Positions 35,301-44,300 of a DNA stretch of 64,000 bases are shown here, one piece after another. The notes beneath the pieces were generated by a model, which was not told the DNA's origin, ran no database searches, and was given only the letters and a program-made list of their open reading frames with translations. This stretch comes from Henricia sp. BOLD:AAB3569. Taxonomy: Eukaryota; Echinodermata; Asteroidea; Spinulosida; Echinasteridae. The stretch spans positions 558,001-622,000 of the forward strand of contig JBBELK010000992.1 in assembly GCA_037783545.1 (NCBI GenBank), written 5' to 3'. The first letter of the stretch is position 1. Each line of letters opens with the position of its first letter. Made by a program: the position numbers and the translations under genes.

Positions 35301-38300
35301 TTTGGGTCATTGACTCACAACCATGGGTGAAAACTTGGGGTTGCGGGTTCTAATCCGGCTGCAGTACCTGTGCCTTTGGGCAAGACACTCAACCACACTT
35401 GCTCCATCCTTCGGAAGGGATGTAAAGCCATTGGTCCAGTGTGTTAGGTAATGGTAACGCACTTTAAAGATCCCAGAGCATTCTTTCGTGAAGAGCAAGG
35501 GGATTCCCCGGTGTCTCTGGCCATTTCTAATTCTAATTGGCTTTCCGCACTCCTTGTTTCTGTTCTGATTTTTTTTGTTTGGCTTTCCGCACTCCTGCGG
35601 AAAGCCTTTGAAACTGTTCTGATTTTTTATTTTTGGCTTTCCGCACTCCTGCGGAAAGCCTTTGAAACTGTTCTGATTTTTTTTTTTTTTTTTTTAGCTT
35701 TTTTTATTCTTCCGTCAAAACCCCATAGACAAAGCGCATGGTCTTTCGGCCTGGCAAAATGGTCACTTGCAAAGCTCGGATCATCATAAAACTTGGTCAC
35801 AACAATCACCTCATAATGAAGTACTGCACAAATGTGTTTACATTTTGATGACGTCATCAGGTGTCAGATTACAAGCGTTTGAAATATATGGCCTTCAATA
35901 TTGAAACTTCTGTAAAAATTCAACCGTTTGAGATACAAACGTTATTCCTTCGGCAATGGTCATGACTATCCAAGGTCTAAATTTCATACACAGACATTGA
36001 CCTTGAATCTTGCTTCCTATTGGTCGAAAACGAGGCTGCCCCGTCATTTAAAACTGGTAGCAGATACAGAGATCGGGTCAAAAGTGTTAGTCTCAAGACC
36101 TCTTGGGCATTCCAAAAATACCAAAAGTTAAGTCGTGACACGAAAGAGCGCCCTCTAGCGGCAAGTTGAAAAATGGCCAAAACCTATTTTGAAGAGATGT
36201 CTGTGGCGAAGTTCTTGCAAATTGGCCCAAAATTGGTGCATATGTTCACTGAGGGTCAGTGAACACGCCATACCTTCAAAAGTTTGATGACGTCACCAGG
36301 TGTCAAATTACACTCAGTTGAACATGCGTTCTTCTAACGGTTATATATAGAGAACGAAAAGGTCGATGGAGGTTAAATTTTGTGTTTTAGGTTTGTTGTG
36401 ACTTAGTCTAATGCATATTAGCAGCAACATTTGGTGGCGTAACGATGACGTCATCAAATAAGCCCGTTTGTGCAGCATACATTAGCCAAGGTCGTTCACT
36501 TCCTCTAATGGGCGTATGACCTTGAAACCTAGCAGAGACGTAGACGTGGTCATTAACATATAACATACCAAGTTACATTAGTGTGACGTCATTTGTTGAT
36601 TTGTTATGAATTTTTGAATCTGGCAACCTATACCACAGCATACACACAGTGCAGTATATACGAGTGTATAAGCATGTACAATATGGCTGCTAGAAGGGTC
36701 GCTTGCAAAGCTTGGATCATCATCAAACTTGGTCACAATAAGGAACCCATAGTAAAGTACTATACCAAAGAGGTTACATCTTGATGACGTCACCAGGTGT
36801 CAGATTACATGTGTCTGAAATTTAATGACTTAAACATTCAACAATCTGTAAAAATTCAACCGTTTGAGATACAAACTTTATTCTTTCGGCAATGTTCATG
36901 ACTATCGAAGGTCTAAATTTCATACTGAGACATTGACCTTGAATCTTGCTTCCTATTGGTCGAAATTGAGGCTGCCCTGTCATTTAAAACTGGTAGCAGA
37001 TACCGAGATCGGGTCAAAAGTTTTAGTCTCAGGACCCCTTGGGCATCAAAAAAATACCAAAAGTTAGGTCGTCACACAAAAGAGCGCCCTCTAGCGGCAA
37101 GTTGAAAAATTGTCAAAACGCGTTTTTAAGAGATGTCTGTGGCGAAGTTTTTGCTAATTGGCCCAAAATTGGTGAATATGGTCACTGAGGGACAGTGAAC
37201 ATGCCCATACCTTCAAAAGTTTGATGACGTCACCAGGTGTCAAATTACACTCAGTTGAACATGCGTTCTTCTAACGGTTATATCTAGAGAACGAAAAGGC
37301 CGATAGAGGTCAAATTTTGTGTTTTAGGCTTGTTGTGACTTTTTCGAATGCATATTTTCAGCAAAATCTTGTGACGTCACGATGACGTCAACAAATAAGC
37401 GCGTTTGTGCAGCATAAATTAGCCAAGGTCGTTCACTTCCTGTATTGGTCGTATGACCTTGAAACCTAGCAGGTACGTAGACCTGGTCATTAACATGTAA
37501 CATACCAAGTTACATTAGTATGACATGCATATTTTGTTGATTTATTATGAATTTTTAAATCTTGTCACTGTGCATGTACATGTACGGTATGCATTTACAT
37601 TGTACAAAGTGTACATGTAGTATTATATAGCATGCAGTTTTCCATGCATACAAACATACACAAAAAGAAAAGCGGAAAGCCATATGCTCTGTTATCAACA
37701 GACATACCTCTAGTTTTTTAGCTTTTTTTATTCTTCTCCCAAAACCCCATAGACAAAGCGCATGGTCTTTCGGCCTGGCAAAATGGTCACTTGCAAAGCT
37801 CGGATCATCATCAAACTTGGTCACAACAATCACCTCATAATGAAGTACTGCACAAATGTGTTTACATTTTGATGACGTCATCAGGTGTCAGATTACAAGC
37901 GTTTGAAATATATGGCCTTCAACATTGAAACTTCTGTAAAAATTCAACCGTTTGAGATACAAACTTTATTCCTTCGGCAATGGTCATGACTATCCAAGGT
38001 CTAAATTTCATACACAGACATTGACCTTGAATCTTGCTTCCTATTGGTCGAAAACGAGGCTGCCCTGTCATTTAAAACTGGTAGCAGATACAGAGATCGG
38101 GTCGAAAGTGTTAGTCTCAAGACTTCTTGGGCATTCCAAAAATACCAAAAGTTAAGTCGTGACACGAAAGAGCGCCCTCTAGCGGCAAGTTGAAAAATGG
38201 CCAAAACCTATTTTGAAGAGATGTCTGTGGCGAAGTTTTTGCAAATTGGCCCAAAATTGGTGCATATGTTCACTGAGGGTCAGTGAACACGCCCATACCT

Positions 38301-41300: not shown

Positions 41301-44300
41301 CGGTATGCATTCACATTGTACAAAGTGTACATGTATTATACATGTATGTACAGCATGCAGTCTTACATGCATACAAACATACAAAAAAAGAAAAGCGGAA
41401 AGCCATATGCTCTGTTATCAACAGACATACTTCTAGTTCTTCATGGGTTTACTCACGCTTGCGAGTGACAGTGCAATGAGCACTATTGAGGAATCCTTGG
41501 TATGAATACCAGAAATAAATAATAATAATAATAATAATTTAAACAACGCTGAATGGTTCTCGACCTAAAAAAAATGGTTTTTGACTTGAAAAAATTAATT
41601 TTAAACTCAAAAATATTAGGGCGACACCAAAATGTCGCCCTATTGAGCAGGTCGCCCTAATATAGCTTTTTTACACACGATTTGTCGCCCTATTCTAGCA
41701 TTGATAGTAATTGTCTAATGTTGGCAAGGCTAAAATGTGTAGGGCCAATAATTTTTAACAATCGCGGAAAATGGACAGAATTCACGGAATCGGACCCGGG
41801 TCATTCCGTGTTAAGGTTGTCAGGGGTCCGACTCGGATTTGGACGAAACTTTTCAAAAAATACTTCAACCTACCGGTATGTCATGAACATGTAAACAAAA
41901 TTAGAGGCCAACTCCAACTCGTTGCTGAGATATGACCTCCAGAAAATGCCTACACTACCCACATTTTCCCAATCATAACCGTGCCATTGAAGTTTTTTAC
42001 ATTTAGTATTTGATGACCCATACAGGGAACCAGTTCAGCTCACACCCGTTCAGCTCACATTACACTGTACATTTACCTTGACTCGGGTTTACTCGGACAA
42101 CACCGGATTTTCGTGTTGTGCGTGTGTGCGTACAGACGGCACTGGAAACCGAGTCATCCGCAAGTAAAACCGACTGGCTGCAGAGGTTGATGTTTAGTGT
42201 CATGAACTTGGAATGTCGATTGTACGCATGTAACTCTATGATCGTATGTTAGCACGTGTGTGTTAGCATTGCGTTCGCACTGTGGACTCGAAACCCATTC
42301 AAGTCCACAATTTGCGGGAAAAAGTGACGGATTGTGGACTTGCACTCGTTCGCTCAAGTCCACAGTCAGGTTGACCAAACTTGGGAAAAGGGGTTAGGGT
42401 GGGGGTGGAGGGTTAAAAATAAAGGTTAGGGTTCAGAAGTTAAGTTTAGAAACATGGATTAGGAAAAAAATTGGGTTGATGAGGGAAGAATTTGGAGAAA
42501 ACAACGATTTTCCGACCAATTCTCTTAAGTGCACGAATACAAAGAAACGTCTACAGTGCGTACGTAATGTACACATGTGTGTGTTTGCGTGTGTTCTCGA
42601 CGGCAAGCTAGGCAAGTCGGTTCGAAAGTATTTCAAAAAATAGCTGAATAGCGCAGCGTGTTTCTTGCATGTGACATACATGTATATACATGTAGGTACA
42701 GTAAGACTAAGAGGGCACTGCGGCCAGGTTGATAAAGGCGCATTGGAGCCACACTGGCCTAAAAAAATGGCGTATAAAAAGGGCTTTGAGGCCAGTTTGT
42801 TCAGGCACGGCGGCCAGTCCGCCGTAAATTTTGAAGCCTGAGGGAGCACGCACGCCCCTCGCACATGTACTCGGTAGTTGTACACAACATTAATTGATTG
42901 TATGCAATCTGTCGAGACGTGGCCTGAACTCAAGTCGCATTCTAACATAATGCACGTATTATACAGTACTACATGTACATGTAGGAAATAGATGGACCTG
43001 CAGGGACAGAGACCAATCCAAATCTTAAAATCTAGACTTGCGTGAAAGGACGACCTCTTTAAATCTCTTCTAAATCTAAAAATCAAGGGTTGCTTTACAG
43101 GGTCGAAAGTTTCAGAATTTTTTCTTGTCAGACATTTTTCTAGTCTTAAATATTTTTGTCTCAAGAAAATTGAGATTTTAAAAATTGAAATATATTAATT
43201 CCTATCCTATTACATTATTATACAACAGTGTATTAGTAATTTTGTCATTTATCTTGGAGTATGGAAATAAAGTGAACTGAACTGAACTAAGCCGTCCACT
43301 TCTTTTAAGTCTATTGTGAATTTGAGCTTAATAGTTTTCCCTGACTCCGGTTTGTAATGCGGCCAGGCCTGTGCATTTTCGAAAAAATGTACTTTTAAAA
43401 AAAGTTTAACAAAAAAGTTTGCCGTGTAATTAATTGATTTTGGCACATTCGGACTAACAGCTCAGAGGAATACAGGAGCCTTTTTATCATGTTTATTGCC
43501 GAATTTGCCTCAAATTATATACTTCATGTTGCAACTTGCATAGCAGTCTCTGGCTCGAAGAGGGTTTTGCCAAAATTATCGTCGGCCCTTGTACACTGGA
43601 CTTGTGGTTGGTCGCAAATACAACATCAAAGCAGCCGTTTTGGCAAAGGAAAGAGGTTTTTTTCTACTTCTTCCTAGCTGAAAGACATGTTTGGTTTGGA
43701 ATGGTAAAAACACATGATATACCGAATATTCAATTTGGTAAAATGCTATTTGAATATTCGATGGACGACCAAATATTCAAATGTTTGATTTGTTAGGCAC
43801 AGCCTTAAACGCGGGTAGTACTTGTGATACTTCTGTATAAATTTATGTCTCTAGGTTCCGGTAATCTAGGTTCCATTTTATTTTATTAAAGGAAATTTTA
43901 TTACTTAAAATAATTTGAATATTTAAAACCAATTTTAGGTGTTCGTCTATGATCGATCAAGCAGTCGTTGCAGTCTTTCACCTTAAAATTTAACTGGTTG
44001 ATTATTCCATTATTCAAACACCAATTTATGACGATGTTCTGTCGAATGAATAAACAATCAAAGGCGATATTAATTTTATCAGATTGTTATACATACGTAC
44101 ATGTAGTCAAGTTTGCTACATAGTGTACATGTATACTTCTCCCTTCGTTCGGGCTCAATCCGCAACTTCAAACCAGTCTCATAACCCAAAATTGTTACTC
44201 CTTTTCTTTAATTTATCATTGCAGTTTGTAAACGATCAAGCTTTCAAAGTTGACGTCCCTTTCAAGTCAAACAAGACGTTCTAACTCATTATTTTGACGA

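What the first reader, a model, noticed from the sequence alone, without database searches (positions are those of the whole stretch)
35537..41436. Helentron-like element precisely splitting a SINE
Copy 9432-9795 gives the uninterrupted SINE sequence (…TTCTAATTCTTCATGG), so both junctions of the 5.9-kb insert are known to the base. The insert has a 5' start whose complement recurs just before the 3' hairpin (GGCTTTCCGC / GCGGAAAGCC), a 6-bp-stem hairpin, an 11-bp spacer, CTAG as the last bases, T next, and no target duplication. This set of traits is known for Helitrons and, with the asymmetric inverted repeat, for Helentrons. The family is not one I can name.
Basis: partly seen in the sequence, partly recalled or inferred. 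Interest (0 to 1): 0.75.

Follow-up and report, generated by a model that had tools for sequence, protein, structure and literature searches.

The report
Nested Helentron-type transposons splitting a SINE
A stretch of repeated DNA inside another repeat turns out to be three copies of a known kind of rolling-circle jumping element, most likely inserted one inside another, and it suggests that such elements pile up into arrays by choosing target sites that look like their own ends.

Summary
Window 35537-41436 splits a SINE to the base and has ends like those published for non-autonomous Helentrons (HINEs) and Helitron2: a palindromic 5' repeat, its complement starting 42 bp before the 3' end, a 6-bp hairpin, CTAG, TT next. 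No autonomous partner with these ends was found.

Two points go beyond the finding. (1) The insert is an array: three 5' modules in a row, then three ~2-kb bodies, each with its own 3' end. Module and 3'-end numbers agree in 9 of 10 insertions read end to end (5 solitary, 4 of 5 arrays). Only 1 of 13 array units is closest to one in its own array, and a second family (B) sits whole in the T-run behind a 5' module. This favours repeated self-insertion over tandem amplification; larger arrays do not balance. (2) The target is T-N-R^TT (58 of 58 non-HINE flanks; one exact-pattern exception), like the element's own 3' junction TAG^TT. Both have precedents in Fusarium Helitron2 elements.

The parts
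35281..35536 (+). 5' part of the split SINE (host target), ending T-A-A before the insertion point
   Evidence: 89% to SINE copy 9432-9795; joined flanks align 95% to 9577-9798 across the junction
35537..41436 (+). whole insert, TTGGC...CTAG: array of three copies, most likely nested, of one HINE-like family
35539..35580 (+). outermost 5' module (left arm GGCTTTCCGC kept, right arm of palindrome lost) plus T-rich run
   Evidence: sequence
35581..35634 (+). second 5' module: 26-bp palindrome GGCTTTCCGC-ACTCCT-GCGGAAAGCC (35581-35606) plus T run
35635..35695 (+). third (innermost) 5' module: palindrome 35635-35660 plus long T run
35696..37713 (+). unit 1 body, ending in 3' end (GCGGAAAGCC 37672, hairpin 37688-37702, CTAG 37710-37713)
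37720..39751 (+). unit 2 body, ending in 3' end (GCGGAAAGCC 39710, hairpin 39726-39740, CTAG 39748-39751)
39758..41436 (+). unit 3 body (internal deletion near 40020), ending in 3' end (GCGGAAAGCC 41395, hairpin 41411-41425, CTAG 41433-41436)
41437..41534 (+). 3' part of the split SINE, starting TTCTTCATGG
   Evidence: 95% to SINE copy 9432-9795
9432..9795 (+). uninterrupted SINE copy = paralogous empty site
48442..48593 (-). paralogous empty site of another copy of the family (solitary copy L070)
   Evidence: joined L070 flanks align 86% over 152 bp across the junction

Best explanation
A family of non-autonomous rolling-circle transposons with Helitron2/Helentron-type ends (HINE-like), moved in trans by a RepHel protein not yet identified. 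The transposase nicks a target of the form T-N-R^TT, which resembles the element's own 3' junction (C)TAG^TT, and joins in an element 5'-TT[palindrome]...[hairpin]CTAG-3'. Because T runs behind the 5' palindrome and the junction at the 3' end are themselves such targets, new copies insert again and again into resident copies. Insertion into the T run behind the 5' module leaves that module upstream and the resident body downstream, giving a Russian-doll array: k 5' modules, then k bodies, each ending in CTAG. The window insert is such an array with k=3 inside a SINE. Shown: ends, target motif, empty sites, copy number, module and 3'-end counts, family B nested in family A. Inferred: rolling-circle chemistry, the partner protein, the order of the three insertions, which module belongs to which body.
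For: Ends: 56 of 58 held 3' ends are TCTAG|TT; 5' junctions. Empty sites: two SINE copies and the L070 paralog, and (ATT)n tracts in phase with one TT kept in L073, L075 and L076. Target: 58 of 58 5' flanks not in HINE-like DNA have T at -5 and A (48) or G (10) at -3, against 30% T and 26% C at non-T-TT sites in the window background; one exact-pattern exception genome-wide. 29 of 100 listed 5' ends sit exactly behind the family's own CTAG. Modules equal 3' ends in 9 of 10 insertions read end to end (5 solitary copies, 4 of 5 arrays); permutation P 0.00035. 12 of 13 array units have their nearest relative, among 19 units compared, in another array or a solitary copy. Family-B copies with both ends lie in the T run before an A body in L074 (behind an A 5' module) and L036. 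At least 576 junctions genome-wide are CTAG-TT-(0-12 bases)-AGCTTTTTTTA, a body resuming without a module.
Against: Counts do not balance everywhere: L075 has 3 modules and 4 3' ends; C46:4.95M 4 and at least 6; C8:1.378M 4 and at least 6; C52:556.7k has 8 modules and 5 listed same-strand 3' ends, with an opposite-strand block between. The exact-match lists, minimum counts on both sides, give for other arrays C41 2/2 but C3 3/4, C37 4/5, C32 4/3, C45 1/3, C46:4.10M 2/4. Genome totals are 963 modules and 1301 3' ends, at different pattern lengths. Regular spacing at C57 (about 2195 and 2245 bp) and three 5007-bp repeats at C194 look like local amplification. In the window, unit 1 is closest to unit 2 (97.5%). 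The 12-of-13 result is what shuffled labels also give (1.09 own-array expected), so it speaks against amplification rather than for nesting as such. Pairing of a module subtype with a given body was not shown. TT on both sides formally allows a 2-bp duplication. No partner with these ends was found, though those tests were narrow.
Confidence: 0.75

Rival explanations
1. Tandem multimers: the transposase ran past its own 3' hairpins (or replicated a circle more than once), so one 5' end is followed by several 3'-ended units; the 5' module stack is a minisatellite grown by slippage.
For: Tandem Helitron arrays ascribed to bypassed termination are in print (PMC4067079 passage; PMC12628747 passage). 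Regular spacing in C57 and C194. Several larger arrays have more 3' ends than modules.
Against: In 12 of 13 array units the nearest relative is outside the array; modules equal 3' ends in 9 of 10 insertions read end to end; family B nested whole in the T run. A multimer predicts like units and no link between module and unit number.
Confidence: 0.15
2. A cut-and-paste or other element that duplicates a 2-bp TT target, with chance resemblance to Helentron ends.
For: TT flanks both ends and occurs once in the empty sites.
Against: Asymmetric inverted repeat, 5' palindrome and 3' hairpin with CTAG 11 bp on fit HINE/Helitron2; T-N-R upstream of the 5' end mirrors the element's own 3' end; the inverted repeat is not terminal at the 3' side.
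Confidence: 0.04
3. Canonical Helitron (Helitron1).
For: CTAG at the 3' end, hairpin 11 bp before it, next base T, base before the 5' end mostly A.
Against: 5' TT-palindrome instead of TC; subterminal inverted repeat pairing the two ends.
Confidence: 0.03

Closest known systems
HINE / DINE-1-like non-autonomous Helentrons (Metaseiulus, Culex, Drosophila; PMC4067079, passages read)
   Same: Palindromic subTIR 2 nt from the 5' end, its complement near the 3' end, a small palindrome 8-35 bp from the 3' end (here 11), TT target, no coding capacity, empty sites without modification; variable T number reported there, T runs here.
   Different: Shared inverted repeat is 11 bp here (12-15 in the mite); target read here as T-N-R^TT; stacked 5' modules with matching numbers of 3' ends; no partner identified.
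Helitron2 (Chlamydomonas and others; PMC3627910, passages read)
   Same: Asymmetric inverted repeats of 8-15 bp, hairpins at both ends, 5' T.
   Different: A Chlamydomonas family inserts between TTTT and T/C; here T-N-R^TT and 3' CTAG.
FoHeli1/2 of Fusarium oxysporum (PMC5148889, passages and sections 10 and 16 read)
   Same: Target TNAT; hairpin at each end; copies with several 5' termini, ascribed by the authors to self-insertion.
   Different: There several 5' termini come with one 3' terminus, with one nested case, and a three-copy tandem case in Metarhizium left open; here whole arrays with similar numbers of 5' modules and 3' ends recur. Ends ATTTT there, CTAG here.
proto-Helentron-Pi of Phytophthora infestans (PMC4067079, passage read)
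   Same: 5' TT, 3' CTAG, insertion between A and T without duplication.
   Different: Autonomous, about 14 kb; said to have Helitron-like structure, whereas this family has the palindromic subTIR.

Membership tests
HINE (non-autonomous Helentron) | palindromic subTIR 2-4 nt from the 5' end | tested here: met
   TT then 26-bp palindrome; fold -14 kcal/mol, z -7.3 for the second window module; the outermost window module has lost one arm, other copies keep it
HINE (non-autonomous Helentron) | complement of the subTIR (12-15 bp in the mite) about 38-60 bp from the 3' end | tested here: inconclusive
   complement present; 11 bp shared; starts 42 bp and ends 32 bp before the 3' end, so within the published range only if counted from its far edge
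HINE (non-autonomous Helentron) | 5-10 bp palindrome 8-35 bp from the 3' end | tested here: met
   6-bp stem ending 11 bp before the 3' end
HINE (non-autonomous Helentron) | inserts at TT without target modification | tested here: met
   empty sites, one TT kept; a 2-bp TT duplication cannot be told apart by sequence alone
HINE (non-autonomous Helentron) | no coding capacity | tested here: met
   longest stop-to-stop stretch 110 aa in 5.9 kb
HINE (non-autonomous Helentron) | autonomous Helentron partner sharing the ends | tested here: inconclusive
   150 scored Rep matches; no family end in 12 fetched upstream stretches; two narrow end patterns 0 matches; the partner may have diverged ends
Helentron (autonomous) | RepHel fused to an AP endonuclease domain | tested here: inconclusive
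   one RepHel ORF (3130 of 3219 aa scanned): Helitron_like_N, PIF1, DUF6570, no endonuclease model at E<=0.01; not known to be the partner
Helitron2 | ATIRs and hairpins at both ends | tested here: met
Helitron2 | RepHel phylogeny in the Helitron2 clade | not tested
   no partner gene in hand
Helitron1 | 5'-TC, no terminal inverted repeat | tested here: not met
   5'-TTGGC with a paired subTIR
rolling-circle transposition | circular or single-strand intermediate, Rep cleavage at the ends | not testable with these tools
   needs an assay

The most novel reading that the evidence does not exclude
The transposase picks targets that copy its own 3' terminus (T-N-R^TT, own end TAG^TT), so the family is its own preferred target; nested self-insertion, rather than replication read-through, is the main route by which it builds its arrays and the clusters that span 100 kb or more, and the stack of 5' hairpins at an array's head records the number of insertions.
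Probability: 0.5. Interest if true: 0.6.

Novelty: new member of a known kind. Interest (0 to 1): 0.42.

Why it matters
Arrays of Helitron relatives are often put down to missed termination or to replication of a circle. Here the two accounts make different predictions that genome sequence can test: equal numbers of 5' and 3' ends and unlike units (nesting), or one 5' end and like units (read-through). If target choice mirrors the 3' end, it gives a sequence rule for where such elements go and why they cluster.

Tried and rejected
Autonomous partner: the C330 pair (L051-L054) is one large duplicated RepHel locus, 99.995% alike over 18.4 kb; against the insert it gave only 25-36-bp matches in TGACGTCA-type or T-rich motifs, not at the ends. 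Upstream stretches of 11 further RepHel loci plus one upstream of the C330 locus gave no family end, only one-mismatch 10-mers in L063-L065 and short T-rich matches. Two end patterns with changed neighbours gave 0 matches. Pairing of the outer module subtype with the last unit: the few cases neither support nor refute it, not claimed. Joined flanks of L067-L069, L071 and L072 found no paralogous empty site in held sequence; they were not searched genome-wide. The C8 and C258 arrays share flanks exactly over 120 bp on each side, so they are one site duplicated or two haplotypes, not independent sites. My first reading that family B as such carries an A 3' end was wrong: the copy in L036 lacks it, so it marks a subtype.

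Rows set aside: 100 of 120 5' ends were listed; 29 (own 3' end) and 13 (HINE-like DNA, chosen by my own list in the script) were set aside, leaving 58, which include two pairs of identical flanks (C8/C258, C114/C176). By eye all 100 have T at -5. The pattern demanded a non-T at -3 and -17, so targets inside T runs are not in that count. The 30 loci L009-L038 were the best matches to a query ending in CTAG, so their uniform ends are partly selected. In one search the module/3'-end correlation uses 12 insertions, the equality test the 10 read end to end; L074 was left out because its array runs past the fetched stretch, and the larger arrays known only from match lists were not counted. In one search L074 is the composite B/A copy.
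Full report
Check. The window holds a SINE copy at 9432-9795 that runs through the point where the SINE at 35281 is cut. Joining the flanks of the insert with one TT gives a 95% match over 223 bp to 9577-9798 and 94% over 210 bp to another SINE in L076. The insert 35537-41436 begins TTGGCTTTCCGC and ends with the subterminal repeat GCGGAAAGCC, a 6-bp-stem hairpin and CTAG; TT follows. The complete 5' palindrome is far more stable than shuffles (z -7.3), the 3' hairpin moderately (z -2.0). The longest open stretch is 110 aa, so it is most likely non-coding.

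Family. The window lies in an unnamed 740.7-Mb genome. The 36-base 3' end has 664+637 matches at up to 2 mismatches, control 0; the 24-base 5' module has 485+478, control 0. Of 58 3' ends in held sequence 56 end TCTAG followed by TT; L005 and L008 hold ends reading CTCAA and CTCTA before TT. Unique 3' flanks differ after TT and unique 5' flanks differ before TT, as expected of transposition.

Target. Of the 100 listed 5' ends with a non-T before TT (of 120), 29 sit directly behind the family's own CTAG and 13 in other HINE-like DNA. The remaining 58 (two pairs with identical flanks) all have T at -5, 48 A and 10 G at -3, no C. At such sites in the window background T is at -5 in 30% and C at -3 in 26%. 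A search for 5' ends with a non-T at -5 and -3 found one in the whole genome (exact pattern). Empty sites: the SINE (TAA^TT) and the L070 site (TTG^TT), whose uninterrupted paralog is in this window at 48442-48593, 86% over 152 bp. In L073, L075 and L076 the (ATT)n phase is kept with one TT. The simplest parse is element TT...CTAG inserted at T-N-R^TT with no duplication. Its own 3' junction, TAG^TT, has the same form. Fusarium Helitron2-like elements are reported to use TNAT (PMC5148889, passages), so the motif is not without precedent.

Array. The insert has three 5' modules (35539, 35581, 35635) and then three bodies ending at 37713, 39751 and 41436. The second and third bodies begin after CTAG and six T with AGCTTTTTTTATTC, without a 5' module. 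That module-less junction occurs at least 576 times in the genome (305+271, exact pattern); in the rows whose letters were shown the gap is T only. Ten insertions were read end to end: modules/3' ends were 1/1 in five solitary copies (L067, L068, L069, L070, L073), 3/3 (window), 2/2 (L071, L072, L076) and 3/4 (L075). Permutation of module counts reaches nine equalities in 0.035% of shuffles. Two larger arrays, read only at their junctions, have 4 against at least 6 (C46:4.95M, C8:1.378M), and C52:556.7k has 8 modules against 5 listed same-strand 3' ends with an opposite-strand block between. From the exact-match lists alone, which are minima on both sides, C41 gives 2/2, C3 3/4, C37 4/5, C32 4/3, C45 1/3 and C46:4.10M 2/4. 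So the balance holds well for small arrays and only roughly for large ones.

Units. Of 13 units in multi-unit arrays, compared with 19 units in all, only one has its nearest relative in its own array, about what shuffled labels give (1.09 expected). For example L076 unit 1 is 98.5% like the solitary copy L069 and unit 2 is 97.0% like solitary L070. Local amplification predicts the opposite.

Heterologous nesting. A second family, B, has the 5' palindrome AGCTGTTTCGG...CCGAAACAGCT and a 3' end with CCGAAACAGC, a hairpin of 9-bp arms and TTTCTAG. In L036 a B copy with both ends lies between an A 3' end and an A body. In L074 an A 5' module and T run are followed by a B copy with both ends and then, after eight T, by an A body. 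The copies in L074, L081 and L082 are a composite subtype: just before the B tail TTCATTAAG they carry an A body end and a complete A 3' end, where the L036 copy reads TTAATTCATTAAG instead. That is the junction expected from an A copy inserted into B at TAA^TT, again T-N-R^TT. 13 of the 100 3' ends listed have this tail. At least 37 B 3' ends of either kind match exactly. If the composite moved as a unit, its transposition passed an A terminator; this is inference.

Mechanism. I take the family to be moved in trans by a RepHel protein. The genome has 150 scored Helitron_like_N matches, many in open frames over 3000 codons; one has Rep, PIF1 helicase and no endonuclease match. None was shown to share these ends. 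New copies enter T-N-R^TT or T-run sites, among which the resident family's own T run and 3' junction are ready-made. This yields nested arrays, or side-by-side arrays when the insertion is behind CTAG. Later tandem exchange probably adds units in some large arrays (regular spacing at C57 and C194). The C8 and C258 arrays share both flanks yet differ in length (17.6 kb with 4 modules, 4.9 kb with 2), so arrays change in place; the middle of the C258 array was not read.

What is known. The end structure is that of HINEs (PMC4067079, passages) and Helitron2 (PMC3627910, passages); the position of the 3' repeat (starting 42, ending 32 bp before the end) lies between the two descriptions. Tandem Helitrons and several 5' termini from self-insertion have been proposed (PMC4067079 passages; PMC5148889 sections 10 and 16; review PMC12628747 passages). 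Searches for self-insertion, nested insertion and multiple 5' termini with Helitron, of which I read only the papers named here, listed no paper whose title or opening abstract reports arrays with matched module and 3'-end counts; most papers of subscription journals are not in that library.

Noticed in passing
L074:372-2565; L081; L082; against L036:1604-2950: Second HINE-like family (B). A composite subtype carries a complete family-A 3' end about 85 bp inside its own 3' end, at a TAA^TT site that is uninterrupted in L036; it may have moved past a terminator.
   Followed up: partly
L074 5' flank; L052 near C330:154260: A third end type (5' palindrome GATCGGAA...TTCCGATC, 3' ...CACAAACGCGAAGCTCTAG) with its own tandem junction next to a large RepHel locus.
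   Followed up: no
G000:C330, C471, C457 and others: Many Helitron_like_N matches in open frames of 3000-4000 codons, some with 45- or 54-bp tandem repeats upstream of Rep; seemingly long for RepHel proteins (recalled).
   Followed up: partly
L051:2-9391:-: This RepHel frame also matches DUF6570, Bactofilin and a herpesvirus tegument N-terminal model.
   Followed up: no
G000:C57:337636-364343: Five minus-strand 3' ends about 2245 bp apart, then at least eight plus-strand ends about 2195-2200 bp apart: an inverted pair of very regular arrays, unlike the irregular ones elsewhere.
   Followed up: no
G000:C8:1378018-1378528: Two arrays start back to back with their 5' module stacks some 60 bp apart; the same flanks occur at C258.
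   Followed up: partly
window 9851-10507 and 29242-29805, minus strand: Open stretches matching PI3/PI4-kinase and PI3K accessory (PIK) domains, possibly exons of one phosphoinositide 3-kinase gene.
   Followed up: no
window 46044-46622, plus strand: Open stretch matching HTH_Tnp_Tc3_2, a Tc1/mariner-type transposase.
   Followed up: no
G000:C190:209286-209307: The single exact-pattern 5' end in the genome with a non-T at -5; not read.
   Followed up: no
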